Shown: positions 22,201-63,931 of the stretch, one piece after another | Position numbering within the stretch: the first letter of the stretch is position 1 | Layout: the number at the start of each line of letters is the position of its first letter | Assembly (NCBI RefSeq): GCF_000003815.2 | Contig: NC_049988.1 | Span: 13,253,266-13,317,265, forward strand | DNA length: 64,000 nt | Direction of reading: 5' to 3' | From: Branchiostoma floridae | Taxonomy: Eukaryota > Chordata > Leptocardii > Amphioxiformes > Branchiostomatidae | The notes under the pieces: generated by a model | Seen by the model: the letters and a program-made list of their open reading frames with translations, nothing else | What the model was told of the DNA's origin: nothing | Databases searched by the model: none | Position numbers and translations under genes: made by a program

Positions 22201-25200
22201 TTTAAGATCCTCTTGAAAGCATGGGCTCTCTCCATACCCACTGTATCAGTACCTGTTCCTGTACCTGATGTTATGTTTAGGTACGCATCCCTACTTGGAA
22301 GCTTAAACAGGCTCTGTCCTTCGTGCTGAACCATTGACTACATGGAATGCAATCAGTGGAAAGTTGTTTCTTTTTCTTTTGCTAAACTATGTCCTTTGTT
22401 GGAAGTCTCCTCTGTTCATCAAACCCTAGAAGATCTATTTAACAAATGTGATTGGCCCTGTCCTTGGTGCTGAACCTATGGTGCATGTTATACAACTGTA
22501 GGAAAGTTTTGCTTTTTTCATTTAAAAAAGATTTGTCTTTAGCTGTAAGTCTCTGCTGATGAATAACACATCTTTGAGGATACACATACAGATGGACAAG
22601 GTCTGGTAGTGGTTTGATTGTCTTTTGTTCCATTTTTGCCGTGGTCGGAATCAACATGCCTCCTGCAGGCTGGCACACTGATTCTGACCACGGCTTCAAC
22701 GGACAAAAGACAATCACAATTGTCCTACACGTAAGTTTGTACAAATTTTATATTATTTCTGCACCTGTAGCCTGGTACGTCCTGGAAGGAGGGTGAATGT
22801 AAGATGTGCACGTGCTGGAACAACCAGCTGAAGTGTGAGGACATCTGCGGCTCTTCAGTCACCATCAGCAAGACTTCACATGGTACAATATGTTGCTTGT
22901 TCATTCATCGCTTTGTTTATGTGTAGCCATTACCAGTTCTCTCTGACTCTCTTGTTGGGTCTCAACAGGACATGGTCACAGAGGTCATTCGGTCGTTGAA
23001 CAATTGCTAACTATAGGTATTTTTTTGGACAGCCATGCATGTTTCCTTCAGAGTACGGCTGTCTTGCATAACACATAAGGCTGTCTTGGATCCTTGTCAG
23101 TGATTGGTTCTGTCACAGCCGGCTTGAAAATCCCAATGCATCAAAATTGTACGACAATTGCATGACCTATATAACCGCGCCCTAACACAAATTGTACTTA
23201 AAATCACTTGGAACTGAATTCTATTCACCTTGACCTGAACTTAGCTTGTTAGAGAGCATAAACATACAATAAAGGTATTCATTGATTTATTTCCCCTTTC
23301 TTCCCTGCATTATATAGGCTTTGCCCTGTGCGACAGCTGCATTGACATCATCTCCCGTAAGGTGAGCGATGACTGGAAGCTGCTGTGCATGGCTCTGGGC
23401 TGCGATGCTAAGACCATCTCCAGTGTGGAAGTGGAATCTAGTGGTGACTCCTTCGTCTGCTGCTCCACCATGCTCAAGGTATGTTGCAAGATACTTTTAA
23501 GGAGGAAACATTTACAGCGATTTAACGTTGCAGTACTGAGAAAACATTACCGAATGGGCACCCAAACAATAAGTGGGACCGAGACAAGTTAAAAGCTGGA
23601 AACAGCCCAGTGACATCTACATCTATTCAATACTGGGCAAAGCCCCTTATGGGAGTGAGGTGCCCTAGCATAACTGGTGGTGGTGGGGGTTTCAAATAAA
23701 ATGGTGAAGTGAAAACAAAATCATTCATTAAAGTGCAGTGCTATACATCTTGGCTTGCTAGGACAAAACAATTCTAATGCTACATTTAGCTTTCCTGTTT
23801 GACAAATTGAAATTAATGTCATCCATTACCTTACAATATGTTTAGCAACTGTTGTGTCCATCTTGTCCACAGCAATGGCGTGACACCAGTAGTCTGGATT
23901 ACGATGACAAGGTTGACGTCGTGTGCCGTGCCTTGGAGGCCTGCGGTTACTCCGACTGCGCTGTTGAGGTTCACGAGAACTTCCGCATGGAGAAGACAAT
24001 CTGCATGAGTGATGACAGCCTCAAGATCATCTCTAAGATCGTGTCATCTGATTGGCAGGCTCTGTGCACTGCCCTGGGCTACAGTGATGATTTCACCAAG
24101 CAGGTTGGTTGTACAAGTGGTTGTGATTGTTAGCATCATCAGTGTGGTAGCATCTTACATTTATATAAATATATAATTTAGTATTTAGAATTTCTTTAGT
24201 GAATCCTCTTTTAACATTACAGTCAGTACTATAGTACCCACAGTGAATTTCAAACCGTAGAGTCAAATTTGTTACATTTTTGTATGATTCATGTCGTTTT
24301 TTGGGTAAGTCAAACTTGACTATATTCTTAAATGTGTAATTTTTTTCTGGAATGAAATATGTCAATGTCTCCTTACCCAGATCATCAGCAAGTATGACAC
24401 TGATTCGTACCTCTGCTGCCACCATGCTTTGACGACATGGCGTGACACGTCAGACTATGACTACGCACAAAAGGTGGAGCACTTGTGCTATGCCTTGGAC
24501 CTGTGTGGTTTCTACGAATGCTCACAAACTGTCAAGAACGACTACCAGAAGGAAGTTGGTAAGTTTGGTTTTTGACCAAGAATAATAGATGTACTCCAAC
24601 TACATGTACATGTAAAACATATATTGTGACTATAGTTGTACTTTACTATAGTGTTGTACTTTGAAAAGAACCAATTTATAAGGGAAAAAGTAAACCCTAA
24701 TGTAAAGAGATCAGTTAGTCATTTACTATACATTGCACCAGTTACTTTACATTTTTTTCGCACCTAACAAGATGCAAGTACAAACTGTTTTGCTTGTATT
24801 TTCCATTGTTCTGCAGTCGTTGCCACATCTCAGGTATCTGTGGTCAGTACTTCTTCTTCTTCTGTGGAGTCTACAAGCAGCACATCCAGTAGTTCTGTGG
24901 TGTCTACAAGCAGTTCTGTGGTGTCCACAGGCAGCACATCTAGCAGTAAGTGTTGTTGTCTTGTCAAAATTCAAATACAGTAGAAGCCCTTTAATTGCAC
25001 GCCCCATTTGCCATCGTATTTTGTGCAATTATCCGGATGTTGCAATAATGCGAGGTTATCCTGCTGGTCCGCACTGGTTTGGGATTTTAGAATTCCGTGC
25101 AATTAACAGAAGTGTGCGGTTATTTGTTGTGCAAATAACTGGCTTCTACTGTACTAGGACTTAACGTAATGTCATTCTACTTGTTCAACTTGACTACTCA

Positions 25201-63931: not shown

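What the first reader, a model, noticed from the sequence alone, without database searches (positions are those of the whole stretch)
23318..63931. Secreted mucin-like protein carrying dozens of cysteine-rich death-domain-like repeats
Seen: 28 modules of about 190 residues, each with two halves showing a helix-1 Trp, LG turn, hydrophobic Ile spacing, LKxW and LCxxL. Known: this is the death-domain pattern, and death domains are cytosolic adaptors for apoptosis and NF-kB signalling that lack structural disulfides. Here the modules follow a VWD/C8/TIL/WxxW mucin cassette in frame and each half has 8-11 cysteines. Inferred: a death fold moved outside the cell and stabilised by disulfides, occupying the place of the mucin PTS region. 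It could act as a structural scaffold or as an extracellular decoy or recognition surface.
Basis: partly seen in the sequence, partly recalled or inferred. Interest (0 to 1): 0.93.

Follow-up and report, generated by a model that had tools for sequence, protein, structure and literature searches.

The report
Giant mucin built of death domains
In what appears to be a lancelet genome, a giant mucin-like gene carries well over a hundred cysteine-rich modules built from the death domain, a protein fold otherwise known as an internal cell-suicide and immunity adaptor, placed where a mucin normally has its sugar-coated middle.

Summary
Confirmed and extended. All 28 modules exist. Each is a pair of death domains by sequence: Pfam PF00531 above its cut-off in 8 of 8 exons scanned; a half-module profile finds FADD first in the PDB, E 1.5e-6. 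They join in frame to a gel-forming-mucin N-terminus (3 VWD, 3 C8, 4 TIL, WxxW); every module enters and leaves in phase 1. Twenty short Ser/Thr-rich exons lie between modules.

The array continues to C10:13389337 (109 single-exon modules, no stop), then an assembly gap. Contig C303 starts inside such an array and continues into VWC, LDLa, VWD, C8, TIL, VWD; joining C303 to C10 is inferred.

Halves carry 7-12 Cys (mean 9.3) against 0-2 in 20 other death domains of this genome; window modules have no N-glycosylation sequon (17.5 expected); pN/pS is 0.09-0.26. So: a constrained, probably secreted, probably disulfide-rich death-domain array inside a mucin. Preferred function: crosslinked mucus scaffold, death domains acting as CysD-like beads.

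The parts
1021..1215 (+). Sushi/CCP exon; further CCP and EGF-like exons lie upstream of the window
   Evidence: Pfam Sushi 47.2 bits, two stretches, on this exon joined with the upstream exons; alone it gave no Sushi hit
2288..6103 (+). VWD1-C8-TIL-VWC-like assembly (exons 2288-2423, 2939-3116, 3458-3683, 4129-4247, 4749-4905, 5825-6103)
7004..11444 (+). VWD2-C8-TIL plus a further TIL (exons 7004-7197, 7462-7584, 7911-8099, 8616-8736, 9311-9484, 9973-10210, 10651-10798, 11302-11444)
11982..16068 (+). VWD3-C8-TIL assembly (exons 11982-12276, 12864-12995, 13407-13573, 14243-14466, 15077-15237, 15652-15755, 16016-16068)
20100..20755 (+). Mucin2_WxxW (CysD) domain, two exons
   Evidence: Pfam PF13330 76.2 bits, full length
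21131..22882 (+). TIL-like and VWC-like exons (21131-21318, 21798-21890, 22771-22882); the last ends in phase 1
   Evidence: labels partly by eye
23318..24558 (+). Death-domain module M01 (exons 23318-23478, 23873-24103, 24381-24558)
24817..25637 (+). Two Ser/Thr-rich linker exons, phase 1-1 (24817-24945, 25545-25637)
26161..29119 (+). Module M02 (four exons)
29431..29487 (+). Ser/Thr-rich linker exon
29922..31358 (+). Module M03 (three exons)
31718..32165 (+). Two Ser/Thr-rich linker exons (31718-31783, 32088-32165)
32775..35313 (+). Module M04 (exons 32775-33169, 35133-35313)
36134..36220 (+). Ser/Thr-rich linker exon
36746..37315 (+). Module M05, single exon
37656..37865 (+). Longest Ser/Thr linker exon of the window, with a 21-bp (7-residue) tandem repeat
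38305..38874 (+). Module M06, single exon
38989..39063 (+). Ser/Thr-rich linker exon
46341..46910 (+). Module M07, first module after a 7-kb repeat-rich intron
47058..63931 (+). Modules M08-M28 with 12 linker exons, mostly in a four-module higher-order repeat of about 3.19 kb; the array continues past the window

Best explanation
The window holds the 5' part of one gene for a giant secreted polymer of the gel-forming-mucin/VWF type. Its ends are the usual VWD-C8-TIL assemblies (N-terminal ones in the window; C-terminal ones on an unplaced contig, link inferred). Its middle is a beaded chain of death-domain pairs joined by short Ser/Thr-rich, probably O-glycosylated linkers. The death domains keep the family's core pattern but look re-engineered for the secretory route: about nine Cys each, acidic, almost no proline, almost no N-glycosylation sequons. 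Most likely mechanism: the VWD ends polymerise the protein as in mucins; the beads are held by intradomain disulfides; and because most modules have an odd number of Cys, at least one Cys in each of those is left to bond a neighbouring bead, another chain or another mucus protein. The array thus works like a hugely multiplied CysD region, giving a dense, acidic, covalently crosslinked mucus scaffold rather than a sugar brush. Shown: sequence homology, phase-compatible exon chain, Cys enrichment, purifying selection. Inferred: single transcript, secretion, disulfides, crosslinking, mucus role.
For: Death homology. Exon chain with mucin domains; 28 of 28 window modules start right after an AG in phase 1 and leave in phase 1, 20 of 20 linkers are phase 1-1; on the C10 array 108 of 109 single-exon modules and 63 of 64 linkers are phase 1-1. 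C303: modules, then Ser/Thr exons, VWC, LDLa, VWD, C8, TIL, VWD (VWD at C303:6424-6648 also). Cys 9.26 per half (39 distinct) against 1.05 in 20 other death domains of the genome; pI 4.7 against 7.8. Sequons 0 in 24 distinct window modules, shuffled mean 17.5, minimum 5 in 2000; 7 of 20 controls have one. 20 of 23 core columns at least 88% hydrophobic or Cys. Selection: mean pN/pS 0.21, 0.23, 0.26, 0.09 in the four module types; Cys changed at 16 of 1928 positions against 323 of 17,884 for other residues (pooled); exons differ 0.9-4.7%, two intron classes 6-7%. Odd Cys number in 93 of 109 modules (counted). [quoted passage not shown]
Against: No structure could be predicted, so fold and disulfide geometry are untested. 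No RNA or protein evidence. No convincing signal-peptide exon: a strict scan of C10:13236000-13245863 gave one weak candidate, about 8 kb upstream of the first CCP exon. C303 is not joined to C10 in the assembly. The chain search only joins phase-compatible exons, so continuity of the mucin part is partly by construction. Not all Cys replace core residues: columns 42 and 50 are polar in 18 and 19 of 21 other death domains, and in module type H Cys are hardly better kept than other residues (2.4% against 3.3% changed). The odd-Cys and zero-sequon arguments rest on few independent module types; on the whole C10 array 1 of 58 distinct modules has a sequon. Linkers contain no proline, unlike classical PTS.
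Confidence: 0.6

Rival explanations
1. Recognition or decoy surface: the secreted array binds death-fold or other ligands of microbes, viruses or host, or neutralises released signalling proteins in mucus, diversifying as an immune gene.
For: The Death domain is the most over-represented domain among dispensable genes in two lancelets (PMC12373286, passages); mucus is a barrier site.
Against: Modules are homogenised in a regular higher-order repeat and under purifying selection on average (pN/pS 0.09-0.26); site-wise selection was not tested. Nothing run here shows binding.
Confidence: 0.15
2. Homotypic packing: the death domains still assemble with each other through their interface surfaces, so the array packs in the secretory granule and unreels on release, and disulfides only lock it.
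For: Homotypic assembly is the general property of the death-fold superfamily (recalled); the core pattern is kept.
Against: Not tested: no model, so interface surfaces could not be compared; the halves are strongly acidic (pI 4.7), which would repel without calcium or low pH.
Confidence: 0.15
3. Two genes: a VWD/WxxW mucin ends near 22.9 kb and a separate death-domain repeat gene starts near 23.3 kb.
For: 435 bp separate the last mucin exon (ends 22882) from the first module exon (23318); AATAAA lies at 23268-23273 (read); a read-through terminal exon is conceivable; no RNA.
Against: The splice phases match; none of the 7 ATGs in the gap reads openly into the first module exon (first exons spliced out of the gap, or further introns, were not tested); the same kind of module is followed by mucin C-terminal domains on C303; Cys and sequon patterns fit secretion.
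Confidence: 0.06
4. Non-functional tandem expansion: the array is a decaying or assembly-made repeat.
For: Near-identical copies, an adjacent assembly gap and a few broken modules.
Against: No stop in the 23,646 residues of the chained exons (the chain only takes open exons), pN/pS well below 1, exons more conserved than introns.
Confidence: 0.04

Closest known systems
Gel-forming mucins (MUC2, MUC5AC, MUC5B) with CysD domains in the PTS region
   Same: Three N-terminal VWD-C8-TIL assemblies, a WxxW/CysD domain, Ser/Thr-rich stretches, and on C303 VWD and VWC; Cys-rich globular beads set between Ser/Thr segments (definition from PMC9169620, abstract and passages).
   Different: The middle is dominated by death-domain pairs, well over a hundred, with window linkers of 19-70 residues and no proline; LDLa and CCP/EGF domains added; cystine knot not looked at.
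von Willebrand factor and ascidian Ci-GFM1
   Same: Same VWD-type ends with a different central module: VWA in VWF (PMC9169620, passages), a chitin-binding domain in Ci-GFM1 (PMC6109156, passages).
   Different: Here the central module is a fold otherwise known from cytosolic signalling, massively repeated.
FADD and other death domains (PF00531)
   Same: Core hydrophobic pattern, both conserved Trp; best PDB match by sequence profile.
   Different: Outside the cell by inference, 7-12 Cys per half instead of 0-2 in 20 genomic controls, acidic, in tandem pairs, no signalling partner domain in the chain seen.

Membership tests
Death domain (PF00531) | Profile match above curated cut-off | tested here: met
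   8 of 8 module exons, 34.7-56 bits against 22.6; 23 of 25 separate halves at E<=0.01
Death domain (PF00531) | Conserved hydrophobic core and Trp | tested here: met
   20 of 23 core columns at least 88% hydrophobic or Cys in 25 thinned halves (exceptions 36%, 4%, 76%); both Trp columns 25 of 25
Death domain (PF00531) | Six-helix bundle fold | not testable with these tools
   Structure prediction failed once, then was switched off
Death domain (PF00531) | Cys-poor cytosolic adaptor (a usual trait, not part of the Pfam definition) | tested here: not met
   9.26 Cys per half against 1.05 in 20 genomic controls; chained in phase with VWD domains. Localisation itself not tested
Gel-forming mucin / VWF | Three N-terminal VWD-C8-TIL assemblies | tested here: met
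   VWD x3, C8 x3, TIL x4
Gel-forming mucin / VWF | C-terminal VWD assembly and VWC | tested here: inconclusive
   Present after the same kind of module on C303, but C303 is not joined to C10 in the assembly
Gel-forming mucin / VWF | C-terminal cystine knot | not tested
   C303:1-6100 could not be fetched; PF00007 search not answered
Gel-forming mucin / VWF | Long Pro-Thr-Ser central region | tested here: not met
   64 linkers on C10, 1726 residues in all, 48% Ser+Thr, 0 Pro
Gel-forming mucin / VWF | Disulfide-linked multimers | not testable with these tools
   Needs protein

The most novel reading that the evidence does not exclude
A wholly extracellular, disulfide-armoured branch of the death-fold superfamily: a single secreted chain of over 25,000 residues with well over 220 death domains (112 complete modules on C10, and 8 full-length on C303, two domains each), used as structural, crosslinking beads of a mucus polymer, so that the fold's role as a cytosolic adaptor is not its only one.
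Probability: 0.55. Interest if true: 0.92.

Novelty: new variant of a known kind. Interest (0 to 1): 0.86.

Why it matters
A fold studied almost only as a cytosolic apoptosis and NF-kB adaptor would have been recruited to the outside of the cell, fitted with disulfides and multiplied to hundreds of copies in one molecule. It would show how a helical signalling bundle can become a structural extracellular bead, add a new solution (besides sugar brush and VWA) for the middle of VWD polymers, and change how death-domain counts in lancelets are read as immune complexity: a 2007 survey table gives 139 (136) death domains for B. floridae (PMC2246300, passages; the meaning of the bracketed number was not in the passage), fewer than this one array holds, so the array is not counted there.

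Tried and rejected
Relatives outside: the search for related loci with the half-module alignment gave 0 confirmed of 43 pattern stretches in genome contigs and 0 of 55 in viral contigs; these collections hold no animals, so this says little. NCBIfam, a prokaryote library: 0 of 25 halves matched. Within the genome, a whole-module protein query gave 128 matches, all on C10 in this array or on C303 (150 of 177 candidates were scored), so no second locus was seen.

Cys pairing by co-occurrence: C84 and C88 are mutually exclusive (r = -1, 25 thinned halves), but this is also the a/b-half split, so the correlation may be descent, and I propose no bond map.

Literature: nine topical searches (one search was for the species) listed no paper whose title or abstract start reports death domains in a mucin or an extracellular death fold. 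Searches found 27 and 212 papers and listed 25 and 20. I saw passages only of PMC6109156, PMC5752451, PMC6071037, PMC2575513, PMC8195603, PMC2246300, PMC6526094 and PMC12373286, and abstract, outline and passages of PMC9169620. The library lacks most subscription papers; two that I wanted are not held. Poly(I:C) data in B. belcheri list a FADD-named and a mucin-like gene among strongly changed genes (PMC5752451); I could not tell whether either is this gene.

Dropped before counts: 5 of 88 exons of the chain (two doubtful short exons at 1903 and 6337; three that are pieces of the reverse-transcriptase ORF). The splice matrices were trained on exons chosen in this region and the chain takes only open, phase-compatible exons, so site scores, openness and continuity are partly circular; module phases were also read directly at the 28 starts and at 27 ends (at 24 of 27 the GT lies at the phase-1 place, the other 3 end coordinates were off and were set). 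Module counts on C10 are of exons 540-600 nt: 109, of which 108 are 570 or 573 nt (the 108th to 109th difference seen by comparing); the split modules M01-M04 make 112 complete. A few more are broken or split. The control set is the 20 best Pfam hits of 150 scored of 588 candidates, biased to canonical death domains, and 73-81 residues long against about 95 for the halves. In one search minus-strand controls were read on the wrong strand; one search corrects this and only it is used for control figures.

Full report
WHERE IT IS. The window is C10:13253266-13317265 of a genome of 513,431,437 bases in 431 contigs. Contigs seen among C1-C19 are chromosome-sized (17-34 Mb in the loci listed; not all sizes seen). 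The species is my inference; no tool named it.

THE OBSERVATION. tblastn with two half-modules and a simple exon-chain search recover 28 modules between 23318 and 63931. M01-M04 are cut by introns, M05-M28 are single exons of 570 or 573 nt. Each module is an a-half and a b-half of about 95 residues. All 28 start right after an AG in phase 1 and leave in phase 1, and 20 of 20 short Ser/Thr-rich exons between them are phase 1-1. Upstream, in the same chain, are a CCP exon, three VWD-C8-TIL assemblies, a WxxW domain, and TIL- and VWC-like exons. Pfam on the joined N-terminal protein gives VWD x3 (E 1.2e-96), C8 x3, TIL x4, Mucin2_WxxW (E 3.3e-21) and Death (E 1.1e-11). More CCP and an EGF-like exon lie upstream of the window. 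The chain search joins only open, phase-compatible exons and was trained on exons of this region, so its continuity is partly by construction.

ARE THEY DEATH DOMAINS? Pfam Death scores 34.7-56 bits (cut-off 22.6) in 8 of 8 module exons scanned, and 23 of 25 separate halves match at E<=0.01. A single module finds FADD in the PDB at E 0.004; a profile of 25 halves finds FADD at E 1.5e-6, then THOC1, PIDD and RIPK1 entries. Aligned with 20 death domains of the same genome and a FADD fragment, 20 of 23 core columns stay at least 88% hydrophobic or Cys; the exceptions are columns 12 (36%), 69 (4%, Ala to Asp/Glu) and 77 (76%). Several core positions have become Cys (columns 23, 28, 81; 78 and 90 in b-halves); column 51 is Cys in 16 of 21 others too; other Cys sit at columns that are polar or mixed in the others (42, 50, 75, 86) or lie outside their alignment. 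Membership in the death-domain family therefore rests on sequence alone.

WHAT IS DIFFERENT ABOUT THEM. 39 distinct halves carry 7-12 Cys (mean 9.26); the 20 controls, somewhat shorter, carry 0-2 (mean 1.05). Mean pI is 4.7 against 7.8. N-glycosylation sequons: 0 in 24 distinct window modules, against 17.5 on average and never below 5 in 2000 shuffles; 7 of 20 controls have one; among 58 distinct full modules on C10 one has a sequon. On the C10 array there is 1 proline in 23,646 residues, 15.1% Asp and 9.0% Cys. These traits fit passage through the secretory pathway. The Cys number per module is odd in 93 of 109 modules on C10 and in 23 of 28 in the window (counted), which would leave at least one Cys per such module to bond outside it or stay free; but these are few independent module types.

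THE ARRAY BEYOND THE WINDOW. It continues to C10:13389337 and meets a run of N. On C10 there are 109 single-exon modules (108 of full length) and 64 linker exons, nearly all phase 1-1, mostly in a four-module repeat of about 3.19 kb. Contig C303 (24,285 bases) has such modules up to one end (8 full-length and 3 partial matches); in the gene's direction they are followed by Ser/Thr exons, VWC, LDLa, VWC-like, VWD, C8, TIL and a further VWD (Pfam; VWD also). The simplest reading is that C303 is the 3' end of this gene; I have not shown the joint, and its last 6 kb could not be fetched. The domain plan is then that of a gel-forming mucin or VWF (PMC9169620, abstract and passages) with the middle replaced. 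The chain has 5,906 residues of modules and linkers in the window after 1,500 of mucin domains; the array on C10 alone is 23,646.

IS IT FUNCTIONAL? Mean pN/pS within the four module types is 0.21, 0.23, 0.26 and 0.09 (27, 28, 25 and 24 copies). Exons differ by 0.9-4.7%, two intron classes by 6-7%; pooled, Cys changed in 16 of 1928 positions against 323 of 17,884 for other residues, though in type H the difference is small (2.4% against 3.3%). The array is under purifying selection and looks homogenised; it does not look like a decaying repeat, although a few modules beyond the window are broken or split in the model.

HOW IT MIGHT WORK. In mucins the PTS region is a sugar brush; some mucins have CysD domains in it, Cys-rich beads proposed to fix neighbouring beads of the filament (PMC9169620, passages). 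Here the beads dominate: pairs of death domains, with a Ser/Thr linker (19-70 residues in the window) after some of them. I propose that VWD ends polymerise the chain, internal disulfides lock each bead, spare Cys bond neighbours or other chains, and the acidic surface keeps the gel hydrated and possibly calcium-packed. A filter feeder that moves food in mucus would have use for a tough net; B. [quoted passage not shown] All of this paragraph on the new protein is inference. The decoy or recognition rival cannot be excluded, but homogenised, constrained modules do not look like a diversifying recognition surface.

NOVELTY. Nine topical searches of the open library listed no report of a death domain in a mucin or an extracellular death fold; that library is partial and I judged most rows by title and abstract start. 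In lancelet or death-domain papers that I checked by word, mucin is not mentioned in PMC2575513, PMC8195603, PMC6526094, PMC6071037 or PMC12373286, and the passages seen of PMC2246300 (mucin not searched) do not describe such a protein. I file it as a new variant of a known kind (VWD polymer with a new central module), with the bolder reading, an extracellular branch of the death fold, given as the novel case.

Noticed in passing
window 17101-19332: Open frame of 743 aa on the + strand, reading by eye as a non-LTR retrotransposon reverse transcriptase with a zinc-finger-like end (no family search), lying in the intron between exons 16016-16068 and 20100-20284.
   Followed up: no
window 39476-40388 and 43097-43683: 163/164-bp tandem repeat in two blocks of the same 7-kb intron (39064-46340), probably parts of repeated elements.
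   Followed up: no
window 22969-23017: Possible extra short phase 1-1 exon between the last VWC-like exon and module M01, read by eye; not in the gene model.
   Followed up: no
L029-L032, C10:13405765-13434645: Downstream of the assembly gap, a tandem family of secreted-looking proteins whose predicted mature end starts with His after a signal-peptide-like stretch (HSWIVCTDY), reminiscent (recalled) of lytic polysaccharide monooxygenases; Pfam gave only a sub-threshold DUF7492.
   Followed up: partly
C10:13374790-13375298, 13342167-13343022, 13385576-13385733: At least three modules of the array beyond the window are split or truncated in the gene model, signs of unequal exchange, mutation or assembly error.
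   Followed up: no
C6:15469235-15504898: Another tandem array in this genome, of VWD matches with a spacing of about 1.94 kb, perhaps an FCGBP/zonadhesin-like gene (guess).
   Followed up: no
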